Both the position numbers and the translations under genes were made by a program. From Streptococcus sp. LPB0220 (GTDB lineage: Bacteria; Bacillota; Bacilli; Lactobacillales; Streptococcaceae): a DNA stretch of 64,000 nt. Shown piece after piece: positions 26,652-59,121 of the stretch (positions within the stretch are counted from its first letter, which is position 1; every line of letters starts with the position of its first letter). The notes under the pieces are model-generated. The model did no database searches, was not told the DNA's origin, and worked only from the letters and a program-made list of their open reading frames with translations. The DNA is taken from contig NZ_CP044230.1 in assembly GCF_008727815.1 (NCBI RefSeq), positions 62,001-126,000 on the forward strand, given 5' to 3'.

Positions 26652-27058
26652 GGAGAAGGAACGTAGTTTTCACTGCCGTTCGAACTTCGTCAACGTACCT
26701 AAGCTCACTAACGTTCGCTAAAGGAATAAGGAACGTAGTTCTCACTACCGTTCGAACTGCATCAATATCTCTAAATTCGGTTGAACTTTCTGAGTTCACC
26801 TCGCTCAGTTTTATAAGGACCGTAGTTCTCACTAGCGTTCGAACTGCATCAACGTAGCTAAGTTCACTAACGTTCACTAAGGTACGTAGAAAAAGCCACC
26901 GGTTTTGGTGGCTCTTATAGGGAGATTATTATGAAAAAGTTTAGGATTTTCTATCAAACAAAGTTAGGAGGTCTTTATTTGATGGTTTTATTATAAGGCG
27001 GTTTGCTTAAAGAAAACTTAAGAAAAGGCGCTGATCGAAAGAATCGGTCTGAAGTCTG
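26652..27058 (+). repeat. Degenerate intergenic repeat, copy 1
   Basis: About 400 bases that recur at 28903-29302. The first part contains three imperfect ~95-base subunits built around CGTAGTTCTCAC...GTTCGAACTGC and TCAACGTACCTAA. The second part is nearly identical between copies: a GCCACC-loop-GGTGGC hairpin (26895-26912), the short frame at 26931, and a CTTAAAGAAAACTTAAG element. The copies flank the regulator and membrane-protein genes. Confidence 0.75.
26931..26996 (+). CDS. 21-residue ORF, copy 1
   Basis: The frame MKKFRIFYQTKLGGLYLMVLL has two basic residues at its N terminus and a hydrophobic C terminus. A GGGAGA site lies seven bases before the ATG. An identical frame with one change (Tyr to His) occurs at 29174. 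Only one base in 66 differs between the copies, whereas the flanking subunits have drifted a good deal. It may be a short membrane-active peptide or simply part of a structured RNA. Confidence 0.35.
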   Translation: MKKFRIFYQTKLGGLYLMVLL

Positions 27059-28902: not shown

Positions 28903-29302
28903 GGACAGTAGTTCTCACTGTCGTTCGAACTGCGTCAACGTACCTAAATTCATAAACGTTCGTAAAGAGAATAAGGATCGTAGTTTTCGCTTCGCTCAAA
29001 CTGCATCAATATCTCTAAATTCGGTTGAACTCTCTGAGTTCACCTCATTAATTTTTTAAAGATCGTAGTTTTCGCTTTGCTCAAACTGCGTCAACGTACC
29101 TAAACTCGCCGATGCTCGTAAAGGTACGTAGAAAAAAGCCACCGGTTTTGGTGGCCCTTATAGGGAGATTATTATGAAAAAGTTTAGGATTTTCTATCAA
29201 ACAAAGTTAGGAGGTCTTCATTTGATGGTTTTATTATAAGGCTCATTTCTTAAAGAAAACTTAAGAAAAGACACTGTCTATAAGAATCGGTCTTAGGTCT
29301 GA
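28903..29302 (+). repeat. Degenerate intergenic repeat, copy 2
   Basis: The second copy of the ~400-base element at 26652-27058. The three upstream subunits are diverged. The hairpin (29138-29155), the short frame and the CTTAAAGAAAACTTAAG tail are close to identical. The direct orientation could support recombination that deletes or duplicates the two genes between the copies. Confidence 0.75.
29174..29239 (+). CDS. 21-residue ORF, copy 2
   Basis: The frame MKKFRIFYQTKLGGLHLMVLL differs from copy 1 in one residue. It has the same upstream hairpin and GGGAGA site. See copy 1 for possible roles. Confidence 0.35.
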   Translation: MKKFRIFYQTKLGGLHLMVLL

Positions 29303-30404: not shown

Positions 30405-30520
30405 TACATCTAAACATACGCTCTTGATAAATCTGAAGCAGTTGACATTTACCTTAATAAGATTAATCAAATTCGAGAAGAAAAAAGTAGTGATTCGATT
30501 GATTTATATTGCAATGTACA
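30405..30520 (+). pseudogene. Relic of a tyrosine integrase C terminus
   Basis: One plus-strand frame reads TYALDKSEAVDIYLNKINQI, closely matching the end of the intact integrase at 37.6 kb (TYAELAPKKKFEAVDIFLDKLQEL), including the catalytic Tyr. A stop codon lies just upstream and the rest of the gene is missing. Its orientation is opposite to the intact integrase, with the 3' end running into an att-like repeat. It suggests an older element once used the same target. Confidence 0.5.
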
Positions 30521-30862: not shown

Positions 30863-30916
30863 ATGTCCCATTGTTATTTCCTCCACAAAAATGTAAGCGC
30901 ATACACAATGGGGCAT
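30863..30916 (+). promoter_or_regulatory. Leader hairpin 2 enclosing a perfect cre
   Basis: ATGTCCCATTGT (30863-30874) pairs with ACAATGGGGCAT (30905-30916), followed by a weak T tract. The loop carries ATGTAAGCGCATACA (30891-30905), which fits the CcpA consensus WTGNAARCGNWWWCA at all 15 positions. This predicts strong catabolite repression of the operon at a roadblock position. Confidence 0.75.
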
Positions 30917-30969: not shown

Positions 30970-31746
30970 ATGAAACGCTTTAAGAATGTAATTGTTCGTA
31001 TTCCTGGAAGAGGAATTAGTGAAGGTATTACTTCTAATCCAGAACTTGGAAAACCTGTTTATGAAAGTGCATTAGTTCAGCATGAACATTATGTTGAAGC
31101 TTTAACTAAATGTGGAGTCAAAATTAATGTGTTACCACCAAATGACGATTTTCCAGATTCATGTTTTATGGAAGATACTGCACTCTGTACAGATAAATGT
31201 GCTATAATTTCCAGACCAGGTGCGGATACTCGTCGAAATGAGACTCAACTAGAAGACTTCCGTAAACTGCTATCTAGTTTTTATTCAAATGTTCATGAAA
31301 TTAAAGCTCCAGGAATGGTTGAACCTGGCGATATTATGATGGTTGGCGATACCTTCTATGTTGGGAAATCAGCCCGTACAAATGATGAAGGTTTTGCACA
31401 GATGAAAGAAATATTAGAGGGATATGGTAAAACGGTCATTCAAGTCCCGTTGGAAGAAGTATTGCATCTTAAGACAGGAGTCAATTATTTAGAGGATAAT
31501 AATTTATTGGTTGCTGGTGAATTTGTTGATAATCCTTTATTTGAATCATTTAATAAGATAGTTGTTGATTCTGATGAAGCATATGCCGCAAACTGTATAT
31601 GGGTTAATGGAACTGTTATTGTTCCAGCCGGATATCCTAAGGTTCAATCTGCCGTTGAACATTTAGGATATGATGTTCTTGTTGTCGATACCTCTGAATA
31701 TCGTAAAATTGATGGTGGTTTGAGCTGTCTTTCATTACGTTTTTAA
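30970..31746 (+). CDS. DDAH-like amidinohydrolase 1
   Basis: A 258-residue enzyme of the guanidino-group-modifying superfamily (pentein fold), of dimethylarginine dimethylaminohydrolase (DDAH) size rather than arginine deiminase size (~410). The catalytic triad is visible: Glu118 (VEPGD), His166 (LHLKT) and Cys253 (GGLSCLSLRF). Substrate-binding acids sit in FPDSCFMEDT (Asp63, Asp69). DDAH hydrolyses methylated arginine to citrulline and methylamines; unmethylated or D-arginine derivatives are possible. It heads a four-gene operon with a permease, a racemase and a second such enzyme, on the AT-rich outer segment of the island. Confidence 0.85.
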   Translation: MKRFKNVIVRIPGRGISEGITSNPELGKPVYESALVQHEHYVEALTKCGVKINVLPPNDDFPDSCFMEDTALCTDKCAIISRPGADTRRNETQLEDFRKLLSSFYSNVHEIKAPGMVEPGDIMMVGDTFYVGKSARTNDEGFAQMKEILEGYGKTVIQVPLEEVLHLKTGVNYLEDNNLLVAGEFVDNPLFESFNKIVVDSDEAYAANCIWVNGTVIVPAGYPKVQSAVEHLGYDVLVVDTSEYRKIDGGLSCLSLRF

Positions 31747-31757
31747 TAAAACAATAT

Positions 31758-31804
31758 ATATGATGGGATAAAGATTTTCTTTTTCCCATCATATTTAAAA
31801 AATA
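31758..31804 (+). terminator. Intra-operon hairpin, possible attenuator
   Basis: ATATGATGGGA pairs with TCCCATCATAT across 25 bases, between the first hydrolase and the permease. The T tract is poor, so it may reduce or process the transcript rather than end it. Confidence 0.5.
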
Positions 31805-31832
31805 ATTTAATTTTTATGGGGAGGATAGTTAT

Positions 31833-33269
31833 ATGACTGAGAAAAATACTGTCCAACAAAATGTTAGTCTACTCGGCTTAGTTGCTTTAACAGTTACTAC
31901 GGTAATAGGTGCAGGGGTTTTTAATTTACCACGTGATTTAGCAAAATCTGTAGCTCCAGGCCCTGCTTTAATTGCACTAGTATTTGCAAGTATTGCCTTT
32001 GCTGTTTTCGTTTACTGTTTGAAATATCTACAAGATCACTATCCAGATTTAGACGCAGGAATTTTTAGTTTTCCAGAACAAGGATTTGGAAAGTTTATTG
32101 GATTTTTATCTTGTGTAGGATATTGGCTATCTATTGTTGTAGGTAATATTTCATTAGGAGTACTTTCGGTAAGTTCTCTTGGATATTTTATTCCAATGTT
32201 TCGTGGGGGAAATAATATCCCTTCTTTAATTCTGTTATCAGTTATTTTATGGGTCTTCTACTATATATGTGCGTCAGGAGCGAGAAACGCTTCATTAGTT
32301 AATACTGTTATTTGGTTTGCAAAAATGATTCCAATTGTAGTATTTATTATAGCTTTATTGATGGCATTTAAGGTAGATGTATTTAACTCTGGACTGTGGG
32401 AAAACGCTTTTGCTTCAAATGATTTACCTTCATCTATAAATGGTCAAATTGGAACAGCTATGAGTTCAACTATTTGGGTGTATGTTGGTATTGAAGGGGC
32501 ATTAATCTATTCTGCACGTGCGAAATCGAAATCAGATGCATCAAAAGCAATTGTGATTTCTTATATTGTAATTGCAGTGACGTATCTCTTGCTGACCTTC
32601 TTAACCTTTGGAGTACTTTCACAAGTGCAAGTTTCAAAAATGGAAGTACCTGCATTAGGTGGCATATTAGAGGCAGTCGTAGGCAAATGGGGAGCAATTC
32701 TAATGAACCTAGGTATTGCACTTTCAGCAATGGGATGTTGGTTCGGATGTTGTTTATTTGCTGGTGAAATTTTAGATGTTGCAGCGAAGCATGAAATTGT
32801 CCCTAAATTCTTTGGTGTTGAAAATACTGTTGGGCAACCAACAAATTCATTACTGGTATCCACAATTATTCAACAAGCATTTTTCATTACCATTATAATC
32901 AATGAATCAATTTATAATGTTATGGCTTTATTTGCTTCAAGTACAATGTTGGTTCCATATTTCACAGTTAGTTTGACTATGATTAAAAAATCAATCAGGT
33001 TTGATAACGGTTTTAAATTGAATGCTTTGCTTGGTTGTATTTCAACTATTGCAATGGGATATTTGATGTATTCAACAGGCTGGAAGTATATTATTATTAC
33101 AGCACTTCTTTTCGCCCCTTGTATGATTGTTTACTATTTGGCTCGTAAAGAAAATAATAAGAAATTCCTCACTAATATCGAAAAAATTATTGCCCTAGTA
33201 ATAGTAGCCTTGGCAATTGTCAGTCTAGTCCTGATTTTTAACGGTACAATTGATTTATCTACCATGTAA
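31833..33269 (+). CDS. APC-family permease, ArcD-like basic amino acid antiporter
   Basis: A 478-residue permease with 12 to 13 membrane segments. The first segment carries TVTTVIGAGVFNLPRDLA, the substrate-binding unwound helix typical of the APA (ArcD/arginine-agmatine antiporter) branch. A GGAGG site precedes the ATG. In arginine catabolic operons such carriers swap arginine for ornithine or citrulline. Its place between two DDAH-like enzymes suggests uptake of a guanidino amino acid and release of citrulline or ornithine. This is inference from family and context. Confidence 0.85.
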   Translation: MTEKNTVQQNVSLLGLVALTVTTVIGAGVFNLPRDLAKSVAPGPALIALVFASIAFAVFVYCLKYLQDHYPDLDAGIFSFPEQGFGKFIGFLSCVGYWLSIVVGNISLGVLSVSSLGYFIPMFRGGNNIPSLILLSVILWVFYYICASGARNASLVNTVIWFAKMIPIVVFIIALLMAFKVDVFNSGLWENAFASNDLPSSINGQIGTAMSSTIWVYVGIEGALIYSARAKSKSDASKAIVISYIVIAVTYLLLTFLTFGVLSQVQVSKMEVPALGGILEAVVGKWGAILMNLGIALSAMGCWFGCCLFAGEILDVAAKHEIVPKFFGVENTVGQPTNSLLVSTIIQQAFFITIIINESIYNVMALFASSTMLVPYFTVSLTMIKKSIRFDNGFKLNALLGCISTIAMGYLMYSTGWKYIIITALLFAPCMIVYYLARKENNKKFLTNIEKIIALVIVALAIVSLVLIFNGTIDLSTM

Positions 33270-33301
33270 AAAATAATAATAATAGATTTGAGGTGAACAA
33301 C

Positions 33302-34381
33302 GTGGGTTATCCAAAGTTTGTTATTGATAAGAAAAAGTTAAAACATAATGCCAAAAATGTATTAGACATGTGTAATGATATTGGAATTGAGGTTGTTGGT
33401 GTAATAAAAGGAATTAACGGACTTGAAGAAATTATTAAGACATTAATAGATGCAGGTTTTAAAACGTTGGCTTCTTCGCGACTATCTCAATTGAAAAGAG
33501 TAAAAGAGATTAATCCAAATATTCTTACTTACGACTTACGTATACCAATGCTTAGTGAAGTTGATGAATTAGTTTCTTGTGCAGATATTAGCTTGAATTC
33601 TTCGTTAGAGATTTTAAAAGAATTAAACCGGGCTGCTTCAGAGCAAAATAAAATTCATAATGTGATTATTATGACTGAATGTGGTGATTTGCGTGAGGGA
33701 ATTTTTGACGAAGAGGAATTGCTGAATACAACACGTACTGTTGAACAAGAATTAAAAAACTTACATTTATTAGGCGTTGGAACAAATCTAGGGTGTTATG
33801 GCTCAATTATGCCTACCCCAGAAAAAATGATGGAACTGATTTCAAAGGCTGAAAAAGTTAGTAAAGCAATTGGACGTAGGATTGAGGTTGTTTCTGGGGG
33901 TGCTTCAACTAGTTTACCTTTAGTTGCAAAGGGATCTATGCCAGAGGGTATCACGCAGCTAAGAGTTGGGGATGCGTTGTATATTAGTGATTTGGATGAT
34001 TGCTTTGATTATAAGGTATTTCCTGATGAAGATGAAGCATTTACGCTACAGGCGGAAATTGTTGAATTGAAAAACAAACCAAGTCATCCAATTGGTACAA
34101 TTGCAGTTGATGCATTTGGAAACAAGAAGGAATATGAAGACAAAGGTATTCGTCGCAGAGCTCTGATAGCGGTTGGAAGGCAAGATTTAGGAGATTGTTT
34201 ACATCTTCGGCCATTAGACTCAAACATTGAAGTAATTGGTGGTAGTAGCGACCATACGATATTAGATATTACTGAAAGCGAACATTGTTACGAATTAGGA
34301 GATATTGTTAGTTTCCATGTAATGTATGAAAATCTATTGATGTTAAGCCAATCTGAGTATGTTGAAAAAGAATATATTTAG
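33302..34381 (+). CDS. Alanine racemase-fold PLP enzyme, ornithine racemase-like
   Basis: A 359-residue PLP enzyme of the YhfX/ornithine racemase group. The PLP lysine is Lys36 in VVGVIKGINGLEEI, and the phosphate-binding region SGGASTSLPL is near residue 200. I prefer the GTG at 33302, six bases after GAGGTGA, over the upstream GTG that lies inside it. It resembles Clostridium sticklandii Orr (from memory), which interconverts L- and D-ornithine. Beside DDAH-like enzymes it may racemise ornithine, citrulline or arginine. It abuts the second hydrolase gene with almost no gap. Confidence 0.8.
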   Translation: MGYPKFVIDKKKLKHNAKNVLDMCNDIGIEVVGVIKGINGLEEIIKTLIDAGFKTLASSRLSQLKRVKEINPNILTYDLRIPMLSEVDELVSCADISLNSSLEILKELNRAASEQNKIHNVIIMTECGDLREGIFDEEELLNTTRTVEQELKNLHLLGVGTNLGCYGSIMPTPEKMMELISKAEKVSKAIGRRIEVVSGGASTSLPLVAKGSMPEGITQLRVGDALYISDLDDCFDYKVFPDEDEAFTLQAEIVELKNKPSHPIGTIAVDAFGNKKEYEDKGIRRRALIAVGRQDLGDCLHLRPLDSNIEVIGGSSDHTILDITESEHCYELGDIVSFHVMYENLLMLSQSEYVEKEYI

Positions 34382-34408
34382 AAGAATATGATTGCTGGAG
34401 GAAGTAAT

Positions 34409-35188
34409 ATGATAAAATATGAGAATATTATTGCTAGAAAACCATGTAAAGCAATGCTTGAAGGAATTAGTACAGGAATGTTCAGTGACGATAAGCCTAT
34501 ATATGAAAAAGCAATTAGTCAGCACCAAGAATATGTTGATGCAATTGAAAGTTTAGGAGTAAAAGCACTGGTTCTTGAAGCTTTAGAGGAATACCCAGAT
34601 TCATGTTTTGTTGAAGATCCAGCAGTAGTAATGAAAGAATGTGCAATTATTACTAATTCCCCAAGAGAATCGAGGAACGGTGAAAAATTTGAAATTGAAC
34701 CTGCTATAAAGAAATTCTACGCTGACGAACAAATCTTTCACATTGAATCCCCAGGAACGATGGAAGGTGGAGATGTAATGCTTGTAGGAAAACATTTCTA
34801 TGTAGGTTTATCTGATCGTACCAATAAAGAAGGTGCTAAACAATTTGGTGAAATAGTTTCTCAATTCGGTTACACTTCTTCCACAATACCAGTGACAGAA
34901 GGTTTGCATTTGAAAGATTTTGTGATTTATCTAGAAAATAACAATATGTTGGTTAGTGCAAAAATGAATGAAGTTCCCGAGTTCAGAGAATTTAATAGAT
35001 TTGTAGTTCCTAAAGAGGAATTATATGCAATTAATAGTTTGTATATAAATGGCACAGTGTTAGTTCCTGCTGGATACCCAAAAACATTAGAACATATAAA
35101 AAATCTAGGTTACCCTGTAAAAGTCGTTAATACAGACGAATTTAAGAAAATCGATGGTAGTTTAACCTGTTTATCTTTGCGTTTCTAA
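34409..35188 (+). CDS. DDAH-like amidinohydrolase 2
   Basis: A 259-residue relative of the 30.97-kb enzyme. I chose the ATG at 34409, which follows CTGGAGGAAG, instead of an ATG 21 bases earlier. The catalytic residues are kept: Glu in TMEGGD, His in GLHLKD and Cys in GSLTCLSLRF. The two enzymes are clearly diverged in the substrate loops (for example EPGD versus EGGD), so they probably take different substrates, or work on different stereoisomers given the racemase between them. It ends the operon; a hairpin follows. Confidence 0.85.
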   Translation: MIKYENIIARKPCKAMLEGISTGMFSDDKPIYEKAISQHQEYVDAIESLGVKALVLEALEEYPDSCFVEDPAVVMKECAIITNSPRESRNGEKFEIEPAIKKFYADEQIFHIESPGTMEGGDVMLVGKHFYVGLSDRTNKEGAKQFGEIVSQFGYTSSTIPVTEGLHLKDFVIYLENNNMLVSAKMNEVPEFREFNRFVVPKEELYAINSLYINGTVLVPAGYPKTLEHIKNLGYPVKVVNTDEFKKIDGSLTCLSLRF

Positions 35189-35497: not shown

Positions 35498-36982
35498 TTA
35501 ATACATAGTCATGAAATCTCCAAGATTTTTGATTTGTTGTTTAATAATATGGTATTGTTCGGTTGAACTTTTGGGGAGAACATATCTTGTAGAGCGTCCC
35601 TTACCTTCTATCTCAATATACTTTTTATTTTGTAGAGATTTCAGGTTTTCTCTAAATTTATATTCGGTCATTAAAGAATTTTCGAGGACATCATTTTTAG
35701 TAATGCTACCATTTTTTATGATATATTCAAGTATTATCTTTTCATTATCTGATATGTCTGAATAAGAAGATAATAAATCTACTTTCCAGATTGTAACAAC
35801 AGTACTATCAAAGGTAGTGCTTACTTCAGGAATTTTTAGTTTATATTTTTCGGAAATATCAAAAATTTTCGGTCCGCCTGACCCAGCTTTTTCTGACATC
35901 CCAATTCTACGGAATAATGAAGAGATTGTACTGTTTCGCGTTTTGGAAGTTCCGCCATGTATAAATTCAGGAATAGAAATTTTCATCTTACCTGGATTTT
36001 TAAATTCATAGAAGTCTTGATAAGCCGTAATAACTATAGGAGAATCAAAATCATAGTAAGCATGCATTAAGCAATTTACTAAAGCTTCACGTATAGATTC
36101 AGATAGGTCTTTCTTGAATGGTAAACGATGAGCAGATTCGTTATTAAACTCAAATCTATCATTTGTTGTAGTAGTTAATTTCTTATATGCTAAATTGAAA
36201 AAGTCGAACATGTTTAAATCAGGGTACATCATATCACCTGTTGAAATTCTATCGTTCCACCTAGTTGAAAGAGAGGTATCTTTTTCAAAATAGTCTAGTT
36301 GAAATTTTGGATAACGAGAAATGATAGAGTTATACTTTCCAAAGAATATCAGTCCTCCTGCGGTTAATTTATATGTATTATTTGTTCTATCTTTTTTAAA
36401 TACACCAATTTCGATTAGAAAATCTCTCAAAGAAATGCTATTATATTTTGTGTTTCCAGTAAGTTCAATTAATAACTTTTTGTAATGTTCTATTGTATCT
36501 AAATTTAGGTCGTTTTCATCAAAATTATTAAGTAACTCACTATCAATATCATCATGAGAACTCGTCATCAGATACTTGAGCTCTTCTTTGTCAAGTCGAA
36601 CATCACCTTCACCTAATCTTTTATATGATTCACGATAATCATTTTTTAGATGAACAGGTTTTTGGTCAGGGTTGGCTTCTCTTACAGTGACTACTATGAG
36701 TTGTTTATCTTTGTTTGGAATGTCAATGTATTCAATGTCATTATCAGTAAGTAGATTACAACTAACTTTTTGTTTGTTTGCAACCAAAGCAAATAAATTG
36801 TTTCGTATTTTTTGAGGATTATTGACTCCTTGGTAGGGGTCGATATTTTTTTCATCTATTCCGAGAATTATTTTTCCGCCATTGGTATTTGCAAATGCTG
36901 AGTAGGTTTCCCAGAAAGATTTTGGTAGACTATTTTCAGCTTTTTTGTATTCTAAATCAACCCCTTCAAAAATTAAGTTCAT
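35498..36982 (-). CDS. AlbA_2 (Schlafen-type) putative ATP-binding regulator
   Basis: A 494-residue protein. The N-terminal ~130 residues form an AlbA_2/Schlafen domain (LEYKKAENSLPKSFWETYSAFANTNGGKIILGID). The centre has a GHKL-like ATPase region (ESIREALVNCLMHAYYDFDSPIVI and NPGKMKISIPE), and the C-terminal ~90 residues form a winged helix (SITKNDVLENSLMTEYKFRENLKSL). Such proteins act as transcription regulators, and some are linked to phage defence. It is convergent with the DDAH operon. Direct repeats of ATCACGCGAAA lie upstream and may be its own operators. Confidence 0.8.
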   Translation of the reverse strand: MNLIFEGVDLEYKKAENSLPKSFWETYSAFANTNGGKIILGIDEKNIDPYQGVNNPQKIRNNLFALVANKQKVSCNLLTDNDIEYIDIPNKDKQLIVVTVREANPDQKPVHLKNDYRESYKRLGEGDVRLDKEELKYLMTSSHDDIDSELLNNFDENDLNLDTIEHYKKLLIELTGNTKYNSISLRDFLIEIGVFKKDRTNNTYKLTAGGLIFFGKYNSIISRYPKFQLDYFEKDTSLSTRWNDRISTGDMMYPDLNMFDFFNLAYKKLTTTTNDRFEFNNESAHRLPFKKDLSESIREALVNCLMHAYYDFDSPIVITAYQDFYEFKNPGKMKISIPEFIHGGTSKTRNSTISSLFRRIGMSEKAGSGGPKIFDISEKYKLKIPEVSTTFDSTVVTIWKVDLLSSYSDISDNEKIILEYIIKNGSITKNDVLENSLMTEYKFRENLKSLQNKKYIEIEGKGRSTRYVLPKSSTEQYHIIKQQIKNLGDFMTMY

Positions 36983-37380: not shown

Positions 37381-37508
37381 AAAAAAGTAGTGAAAAAGGT
37401 AGTGATTCGGTTGGTTTTTAGTGCAATAGTTCGCATTTGGCAAAAAGAAAAAAGTCGTTGAAATTGATTTTCAACGACTTTTTAAACTCAATTATTTAAC
37501 TTCTGTAA
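37381..37508. other. att-like site B between outer segment and ICE
   Basis: This block repeats site A: arm motifs (GTAGTGA at 37387 and GGTAGTGAT at 37399), a hairpin (37453-37482) and the core TTATTTAACTTCTGTAA at 37492-37508. On the minus strand the core reads ACA GAA GTT AAA TAA, the Thr-Glu-Val-Lys-stop of rpmG, followed by a terminator. It looks like an original rpmG 3' end and is the left boundary of the ICE. Confidence 0.75.
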
Positions 37509-58984: not shown

Positions 58985-59121
58985 AAAAAAGGTAGTGAAA
59001 AAGGTAGTGATTCGATTGATTTATATTGCAATGTAGTGAAATTTGAAATTTCAAAAATTGCTTAAAATCAAGGTTTTTAACGTCTATTGACGTGTAGTGA
59101 ACCCCTATTTCACTTCTGTAA
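58985..59121. other. att-like site C, right end of the island at rpmG
   Basis: Arm-type motifs GGTAGTGAA (58991) and GGTAGTGAT (59003) and two further GTAGTGA copies (59033, 59094) precede the core CTATTTCACTTCTGTAA (59105-59121), which is the 3' end of rpmG. The core matches site B at 15 of 17 bases, and the sequence GATTCGATTGATTTATATTG matches site A. Both differences are silent or in the stop codon, so RpmG keeps its Thr-Glu-Val-Lys ending. Confidence 0.8.

What the first reader, a model, noticed from the sequence alone, without database searches (positions are those of the whole stretch)
30970..35188. Possible undescribed pathway: two DDAH-like hydrolases, an ArcD-like permease and an ornithine-racemase-like enzyme
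Both hydrolases keep the Cys-His-Glu triad but differ in substrate loops, and a PLP racemase lies between permease and the second hydrolase. No carbamoyltransferase or carbamate kinase is present. The set could import methylated or D-forms of arginine from host or diet, hydrolyse them to citrulline, invert stereochemistry and export or feed the product to the chromosomal arginine pathway. Carriage on a mobile segment would spread it.
Basis: partly seen in the sequence, partly recalled or inferred. Interest (0 to 1): 0.85.

Follow-up and report, generated by a model that had tools for sequence, protein, structure and literature searches.

The report
Mobile methylarginine operon with a racemase
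A mouth streptococcus carries a four-gene, horizontally spread cassette that probably feeds methylated arginines into its ordinary arginine-burning energy pathway, with a puzzling amino-acid racemase that may flip the waste product before it is pumped out.

Summary
In detail: 30970-35188 is a compact operon, H1 (DDAH-like hydrolase) - PERM (ArcD-like antiporter) - RAC (ornithine-racemase-like) - H2 (second, diverged DDAH-like hydrolase). The host, of the Streptococcus parasanguinis group, has arcA-arcB-arcC elsewhere, so carbamoyltransferase and carbamate kinase are supplied by the chromosome. The same cassette occurs in S. rubneri, Bulleidia, Anaerococcus and an Aerococcaceae-like genome; in Bulleidia and Anaerococcus its proteins are 79-94% identical to the window's while ArcA/ArcB are 51-58%, so it has moved horizontally. 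In the window it lies between att-like repeats beside a conjugative-type element. Related operons put H1 relatives with arcB/arcC, and one reads H2-H1-arcA-arcB-RAC-PERM-arcC, which ties the set to arginine-deiminase energy metabolism and suggests that H1 handles something other than plain arginine, most simply N-methylarginines. Racemase-bearing operons use their own permease clade, and 0 of 12 such genomes have D-ornithine aminomutase. Best reading: methylarginine in, citrulline to ATP, ornithine racemised and exported. The racemase substrate is unproven: its signature residues differ from those of ora-linked ornithine racemases. New variant of a known kind.

The parts
30970..31746 (+). H1: DDAH-like guanidino hydrolase (258 aa), groups with P. 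aeruginosa DDAH
31833..33269 (+). PERM: ArcD/AdiC-type APC antiporter (478 aa), in the racemase-linked permease clade
33293..34381 (+). RAC: Orr-like PLP racemase, alanine-racemase fold (362 aa, GTG start), catalytic Lys39
34388..35188 (+). H2: second DDAH-like hydrolase (266 aa), separate clade with 11 fixed differences, triad intact
30891..30905 (+). Exact match to a recalled catabolite-responsive (cre) consensus, 64 bp before H1, conserved in S. rubneri
30487..30515 (+). att-like repeat copy 1, left of the cassette
37399..37427 (+). att-like repeat copy 2 (4 mismatches), right of cassette plus AlbA/Schlafen gene
59004..59032 (+). att-like repeat copy 3, right end of the neighbouring integrase element

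Best explanation
A horizontally mobile add-on to the arginine deiminase (ADI) pathway. PERM takes up an N-methylated arginine (monomethyl- or asymmetric dimethylarginine). H1, and H2 for a related guanidino substrate, hydrolyse it to L-citrulline plus (di)methylamine. The host's ArcB and ArcC turn citrulline into ornithine, CO2, NH3 and ATP. RAC racemises ornithine, and PERM exports the D-form (or the D/L mixture) in exchange for new substrate. Shown: genes, order, conservation, intact catalytic residues, ADI genes in the carriers tested, H1 relatives in one gene run with arcB/arcC, a permease clade specific to racemase-bearing operons, no D-ornithine aminomutase in the 12 carriers tested, horizontal transfer. 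Inferred: methylarginine as substrate, ornithine as RAC substrate, direction of exchange.
For: H1 is close to P. aeruginosa DDAH and groups with it. H1 relatives stand in one gene run with arcB and/or arcC in 4 of the 26 DDAH loci read in the order: L060, L070, L071, L099 (OTCase and carbamate kinase confirmed over cut-off). L060 reads H2-H1-arcA-arcB-RAC-PERM-arcC, so there H1 works beside ArcA (arcA 559 bits). arcA is in 21 of 21 genomes tested with permease-linked DDAH operons (12 with RAC, 9 without). 12 racemase-linked permeases form one clade (100/100) and 8 permeases of racemase-less H1-PERM operons another (96/95); 2 label changes, 0 of 500 shuffles as low. DDAH-linked RACs branch within the Orr family, next to ora-linked genes. 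OraE: 0 of 12 racemase-bearing genomes, positive control found, so D-ornithine would have no ora route there. Exact cre matches upstream of 4 of 12 racemase-bearing operons and 0 of 43 other DDAH genes fit catabolite-controlled energy metabolism.
Against: arcA is not significantly tied to DDAH as such: in the 198-genome sample 12 of 15 DDAH genomes and 115 of 183 others have it (p = 0.26); only the 11 permease-linked ones are 11 of 11 (p = 0.008, chosen afterwards). G586 has DDAH with arcB-arcC but no arcA, so a DDAH may stand in for ArcA there. RAC, PERM, H1 and H2 all score below the NCBIfam cut-offs, although one ora-linked Orr (L041, 460 bits) does too. DDAH-linked RACs have S61, Q66 and D/N227 where all 20 ora-linked ones have D/E61, N66 and E227, at or next to strand ends of the modelled barrel, so the substrate may not be ornithine. 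Support for the DDAH-linked RAC clade is modest (86/64). Most loci were found with a DDAH query. The antiporter-model score does not separate racemase-linked from other permeases (400-533 against 453-618 bits).
Confidence: 0.43

Rival explanations
1. RAC acts on another amino acid (citrulline, arginine, a methylarginine, serine or alanine), and PERM exchanges arginine or methylarginine for that D-amino acid.
For: S61/Q66 signature in 12 of 12 DDAH-linked RACs (L080 apart) and 105 of the 120 listed nearest database relatives, against D/E61-N66 in 20 of 20 ora-linked Orr. A distant DDAH-PERM-RAC operon (L080, with the D61/N66 pattern) is followed by a D-serine ammonia-lyase gene (682 bits). ArcD2 of L. 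lactis is proposed to be an Arg/Ala exchanger (PMC5300872, passages).
Against: The number of family-conserved columns lost (10 of 69) is within the range of six other clades (3-10 of 72-78). RAC branches within the Orr family. Ornithine is the product that an ADI-type antiporter must export.
Confidence: 0.25
2. Scavenging in the opposite sense: PERM imports D-ornithine or D-arginine from neighbours or host, RAC converts it to the L-form, and the hydrolases act on unrelated guanidino compounds.
For: Racemases are reversible; arc genes flank RAC-PERM in L060.
Against: Importing D-ornithine yields no energy by the ADI route. Racemase-less H1-PERM operons suggest that the permease serves the DDAH substrate.
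Confidence: 0.12
3. The hydrolases act on other guanidines (canavanine, hydroxyarginine, arginine itself) and the cassette is mainly detoxification or extra ammonia for acid tolerance.
For: H2 has 11 fixed differences, four of them within four residues of His162/Cys249 (165, 166, 246, 248). H2 also occurs without RAC or PERM (L058, L059, L076-L078). In G586 (L071) a DDAH lies with arcB-arcC in a genome without arcA, as if it replaced ArcA.
Against: arcA is present in 21 of 21 permease-linked DDAH-operon genomes tested. H1 keeps the PaDDAH pattern and groups with PaDDAH.
Confidence: 0.15
4. RAC is an uncoupled hitchhiker with no role in the same pathway.
For: 8 of 26 DDAH loci in the order have H1-PERM without RAC.
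Against: RAC adjoins PERM in two gene orders (PERM-RAC and RAC-PERM) and tracks one permease clade.
Confidence: 0.05

Closest known systems
Arginine deiminase (ADI) pathway, arcABC plus arcD/arcE
   Same: Citrulline as entry to ArcB/ArcC, antiporter of the ArcD type, arc genes in relatives of the cassette
   Different: Entry by DDAH-like hydrolases; a racemase; two hydrolases; arc enzymes supplied in trans. A term search of the ADI survey PMC5300872 found no 'racemase' or 'dimethylarginin' in its main text
P. aeruginosa DDAH (dimethylargininase, NF045658)
   Same: Triad and substrate-contact residues, end-to-end alignment, tree position (H1)
   Different: Scores below the equivalog cut-off (H1 364, H2 289, cut-off 450); operon with permease and racemase
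Ornithine racemase Orr of the ora/ord/ort oxidative ornithine pathway (NF040742)
   Same: About 37-42% identity to ora-linked Orr, alanine-racemase fold, invariant Lys39, Arg134, Arg224
   Different: No oraE in 12 of 12 carriers tested; S61/Q66/D-N227 instead of D-E61/N66/E227; 399 bits against a 480 cut-off (ora-linked L019 546, L041 460)
L. lactis ArcD1/ArcD2 and E. coli AdiC (APC exchangers)
   Same: APC family; aligns with AdiC and the ArcD model over most of its length
   Different: Separate racemase-linked clade; below the TIGR03810 and TIGR00905 cut-offs
ICE-associated att-bounded islands (CIME-like; concept recalled)
   Same: Stretch without its own integrase between att-like repeats, beside an element with integrase and conjugation-type genes
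   Different: Excision not tested; L003 has only the right-hand repeat; none found in the S. rubneri, Bulleidia and Anaerococcus stretches

Membership tests
Dimethylargininase (DDAH) | Catalytic Cys-His-Glu triad and substrate-contact residues | tested here: met
   kept in H1, in H2 and in 12 of 12 H2-clade members (contact roles recalled)
Dimethylargininase (DDAH) | NCBIfam NF045658 equivalog cut-off (450 bits) | tested here: not met
   H1 363.9, H2 288.8
Dimethylargininase (DDAH) | Hydrolysis of MMA/ADMA to citrulline | not testable with these tools
   needs purified enzyme
Ornithine racemase Orr | NCBIfam NF040742 cut-off (480 bits) | tested here: not met
   398.7; but ora-linked L041 also fails (459.9) while L019 passes (545.6)
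Ornithine racemase Orr | Invariant catalytic residues and alanine-racemase fold | tested here: met
   K39, R134, R224 invariant in 34 of 34; pLDDT 93.9
Ornithine racemase Orr | Genome holds D-ornithine aminomutase (ora) downstream step | tested here: not met
   0 of 12 carriers, control positive; L080's genome not tested
Arginine-ornithine antiporter ArcD (TIGR03810) | Equivalog cut-off (591 bits) | tested here: not met
   413.4; the 12 other racemase-linked permeases scored are also below, as are 9 of 10 racemase-less ones
Arginine-ornithine antiporter ArcD (TIGR03810) | Arg/Orn exchange | not testable with these tools
   needs proteoliposomes
ADI pathway | arcA, arcB and arcC present | tested here: met
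   in the genome, not in the operon:
Cis-mobilisable (att-bounded) element | Flanking att-like repeats, no own integrase, neighbouring element with integrase | tested here: inconclusive
   repeats (both sides in window, L007, L008; one side in L003); cassette-free site in L112; neighbouring element; excision not shown

The most novel reading that the evidence does not exclude
A stereochemical one-way valve for ADI-type fermentation: methylarginine-derived ornithine is flipped to D-ornithine and exported by a dedicated methylarginine/D-ornithine antiporter, so the waste neither competes for re-uptake nor inhibits the pathway. The cassette moves among human-associated Gram-positives (habitats recalled) and would consume host NO-synthase inhibitors while releasing D-ornithine.
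Probability: 0.27. Interest if true: 0.82.

Novelty: new variant of a known kind. Interest (0 to 1): 0.6.

Why it matters
If true, human-associated streptococci and anaerobes could gain ATP and ammonia from methylarginines, which are endogenous inhibitors of NO synthase (recalled). That would give a mobile microbial sink for a host signalling metabolite, a new branch of the ADI pathway, and a use for an amino-acid racemase in fermentation. It also gives a small set of genes whose substrates can be settled by simple assays.

Tried and rejected
Membership of the neighbouring integrase element: rejected. L007 and L103 carry the cassette without that element, so the cassette is beside it, not part of it.

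DDAH as a plain replacement for ArcA: rejected for the permease-linked operons only (arcA in 21 of 21 tested; in the same run in L060). It is not excluded elsewhere: G434, G493 and G586 carry a DDAH and are among the genomes without an arcA match (sample membership worked out from the run of handles).

arcA presence as evidence for DDAH in general: weak (12 of 15 against 115 of 183, p = 0.26). After this check I lowered the best explanation from 0.45 to 0.43 and the novel case from 0.28 to 0.27, and raised the 'other guanidines' rival from 0.13 to 0.15.

Antiporter-model score as a test of racemase linkage: not decisive. Cassette-clade permeases score 400-420 bits, other racemase-linked ones 502-533, racemase-less ones 453-618, with 1 of 10 of the latter over the cut-off. 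I rely on the tree instead.

RAC signature as proof of another substrate: not accepted. The count of lost conserved columns is within the range of other clades, and model coordinates could not be measured.

Plasmid carriage of close cassette genes: no match of 60% identity or more for RAC (20 records) or H2 (186 records).

Promoter scan: no more sites than shuffles (21 against 24.8). Four upstream motifs were tried and only cre gave an exact match. In the whole window cre matches are 3 against 1.15 expected, reached by 9 of 100 shuffles, so its value is conservation. One search used mononucleotide shuffles.

Papers: no paper in the library holds both 'dimethylarginine dimethylaminohydrolase' and 'ornithine racemase'. 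Searches listed no paper on such an operon, judging from titles and abstract starts only. I saw passages of PMC8803604, PMC5300872, PMC7818446 and PMC12713382 and no whole paper.

Rows dropped before trees: near-identical loci L003, L007, L008, L102, L103 and own-genome fragments L010, L011, L014; window sequences were added back.
Full report
The operon is real. Four genes on the + strand at 30970-35188 are packed with 86, 23 and 6 bp between them: H1 (258 aa), PERM (478 aa), RAC (362 aa, GTG start), H2 (266 aa). H1 and H2 match P. aeruginosa DDAH over nearly their whole length. Two solved chains carry changes at the expected catalytic positions (Ser for Cys249 in 1h70, Gly for His162 in 3bpb; alignments). 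H1 and H2 keep Glu114, His162 and Cys249 and also D60, E65, D66, R85 and R132 in PaDDAH numbering. The roles of these residues in binding an L-amino-acid head group and the guanidino group are recalled; my paper search found no open text (0 papers).

H1 and H2 are not recent duplicates. In a tree of 58 DDAH-like proteins (68 found, 13 near-identical or own-genome rows dropped, 3 added) H1 groups with PaDDAH and with the DDAHs of H1-PERM operons, while H2 belongs to a clade of 12 (100/99). The H2 clade differs from the other 46 at 11 fixed positions, including 165-166 just after His162 and 246 and 248 beside Cys249. This fits a different guanidino substrate. H2 also occurs without RAC or PERM nearby in 5 of the 12 (L058, L059, L076-L078).

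PERM is an APC-family protein. It scores 413 bits with the arginine-ornithine antiporter model (cut-off 591) and aligns with AdiC. RAC scores 399 bits with the Orr model (cut-off 480); the cut-off is strict, since one ora-linked Orr passes (L019, 546) and another does not (L041, 460). AlphaFold with 34 sequences gives a confident alanine-racemase fold (pLDDT 93.9, pTM 0.90). The best structural matches are tied among D-threonine aldolase, D-serine dehydratase and alanine racemases (Foldseek puts an alanine racemase first), which shows fold and not substrate.

The host is of the Streptococcus parasanguinis group: outside the cassette, large flanking blocks of the window are about 93-95% identical in DNA to records of that species (L003, L008). 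Its arcA, arcB, arcC and a YfcC-like transporter stand together elsewhere (L015). The genome also has two further Ala_racemase_N proteins, by size an ordinary alanine racemase and a YggS-like protein.

The four-gene cassette in the same order was found in S. parasanguinis (L003, L008), Streptococcus sp. (L007), S. rubneri (L004), Bulleidia extructa (L005), Anaerococcus provencensis (L006) and G684 (L056; its contig length equals that given for Eremococcus coleocola proteins, so probably that species), with different neighbours. Against the window, Bulleidia H1/PERM/RAC/H2 are 94/86/84/83% identical and Anaerococcus 92/81/79/83%, while their ArcA/ArcB are 51/58% and 54/58%. For G684 the cassette is 85/79/72/77% against 68/74% for ArcA/ArcB, and for S. 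rubneri 98/94/88/91% against 96/99%, so the last two do not by themselves show transfer. Transfer between classes is clear for the first two.

In the window and its closest relatives the cassette sits in a variable region between sdpI and ilvD. In genome G1009 this site has no cassette: the position matching window 30384 is followed after about 195 bp by that matching 59106 (L112). Of the other flank-bearing stretches fetched, L109-L111 also show no cassette and L113 has it. A repeat core is found at 30487, 37399 and 59004. Cassette plus an AlbA/Schlafen gene lie between copies 1 and 2. An element with a tyrosine integrase, TcpC, FtsK/SpoIIIE, AAA_10, rolling-circle Rep and CHAP proteins lies between copies 2 and 3. 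L007 and L103 have copies 1 and 2 without that element; L008 and L113 have copies on both sides of the cassette; L003 and L102 have only one, on the right. This looks like an att-bounded island beside an integrative conjugative-type element; excision is not shown.

What do relatives say? In a sample of 395 genomes of the order, 26 have a DDAH of this type (E up to 1e-20). I read all 26 loci, some near contig ends: 11 are linked to RAC and PERM, 8 have H1-PERM without RAC, 7 have other arrangements. In the order of Anaerococcus 23 of 150 genomes have one, at 26 places; I fetched 20 places more and found one further RAC-linked case (L080), two H1-PERM cases (L082, L091), and otherwise other neighbours. 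H1 relatives lie in one run with arcB and/or arcC in L060, L070, L071 and L099 (OTCase and carbamate kinase over cut-off). L060 reads H2-H1-arcA-arcB-RAC-PERM-arcC. Thus citrulline from H1 can feed ArcB/ArcC, and in L060 H1 works beside ArcA rather than instead of it.

arcA occurs in 21 of 21 tested genomes with permease-linked DDAH operons (12 with RAC, 9 without). The control is sobering: in a 198-genome sample of the order (127 with arcA) 12 of 15 DDAH genomes and 115 of 183 others have arcA (p = 0.26), and only the 11 permease-linked ones stand out (11 of 11, p = 0.008, grouping chosen afterwards, genomes related). G586 has DDAH-arcB-arcC without arcA, where the DDAH may replace ArcA.

The racemase comes with its own permease. 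In a tree of 23 permeases (28 found, 6 dropped, window added), 12 racemase-linked ones form one clade (100/100) and 8 from racemase-less operons another (96/95). L080 is a separate, distant racemase-linked case beside two racemase-less ones. These loci were gathered with a DDAH query, or a RAC query for L003-L008, so this speaks only of DDAH-linked permeases. The simplest reading is that PERM carries RAC's substrate or product.

What does RAC act on? In a tree of 52 Orr-like proteins (58 found, 7 dropped, window added) 12 DDAH-linked RACs group together (86/64) within the family, near ora-linked genes (20 rows ora-linked, 19 neither). Oxidative ornithine fermenters use Orr to make D-ornithine for OraSE (PMC8803604, passages), but OraE is absent from 12 of 12 racemase-bearing genomes tested, with a positive control. 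If RAC makes D-ornithine it is exported or put to another use. Against a simple equation with Orr: all 12 DDAH-linked RACs of that clade have S61, Q66 and D/N227 where all 20 ora-linked have D/E61, N66 and E227, and 105 of the 120 listed nearest database relatives share S61/Q66 (5152 hits in all). Residues 61 and 81 end barrel strands and 227 follows one in the model, so they may line the pocket; distances could not be measured. The count of lost conserved columns (10 of 69) is not exceptional (3-10 of 72-78 in six other clades).

Regulation. An exact match to a recalled cre consensus lies at 30891-30905, 64 bp before H1, and is conserved in S. rubneri. Exact matches lie upstream of 4 of 12 racemase-bearing operons and 0 of 43 other DDAH genes, some of which are inside operons. 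In the window as a whole such matches are only mildly in excess (3 against 1.15). CcpA represses arginine catabolism in S. aureus (PMC12713382, passages), so catabolite control would be in character.

Model. Methylarginine enters by PERM; H1 and H2 make citrulline and methylamines; ArcB and ArcC yield ornithine and ATP; RAC flips ornithine; PERM exports it. L. lactis ArcD2 exchanges Arg for Orn without an effect of membrane potential and carries citrulline about five times more slowly and electrogenically (PMC7818446, passages), so cationic ornithine is the natural counter-substrate for a cationic methylarginine. Racemising it would lower L-ornithine inside and outside, relieving competition for uptake and product inhibition; this benefit is my inference.

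Verdict. All four proteins belong to known superfamilies but fall below the curated cut-offs of the named families, so I describe them as DDAH-like, ArcD-like and Orr-like. The combination is a new variant of the ADI pathway; I found no paper on it.

Noticed in passing
window 37300-59030: An integrative conjugative-type element with tyrosine integrase, CHAP, AAA_10, TcpC, FtsK/SpoIIIE, rolling-circle Rep and M78/S24-HTH regulators, flanked by direct repeats (80 nt, 90% identical).
   Followed up: partly
window 26889-26983 and 29132-29226, - strand: Two copies of the Cia-dependent small RNA csRNA (Rfam RF02379) within larger direct repeats.
   Followed up: no
window 35498-36982, - strand: AlbA_2/Schlafen plus RecG-C-like protein between the cassette and att-like repeat copy 2, present in L007 and L103 and not seen in the L003 and L008 stretches.
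   Followed up: no
L081, L085-L088, L092, L093: Recurrent clusters in the order of Anaerococcus: a DDAH, a second ADI-like hydrolase of about 291-311 aa, an M20 peptidase-like protein of about 550 aa (RocB-like by recall) and often a carrier protein. Possibly another two-hydrolase arginine pathway.
   Followed up: partly
L080:79-5004: DDAH - permease - Orr-like racemase - D-serine ammonia-lyase in one direction, an apparently independent pairing of DDAH and racemase.
   Followed up: partly
L076:8245-12590: H2 orthologue in a genome of the order of Anaerococcus beside two RraA-like proteins, a GltS-like carrier and a GntR-like regulator (the second RraA-like protein and the carrier judged partly by eye).
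   Followed up: no
L071:338-6903: arcB-arcC-DDAH-YfcC-like cluster in a genome without an arcA match (G586): a possible DDAH standing in for arginine deiminase.
   Followed up: partly
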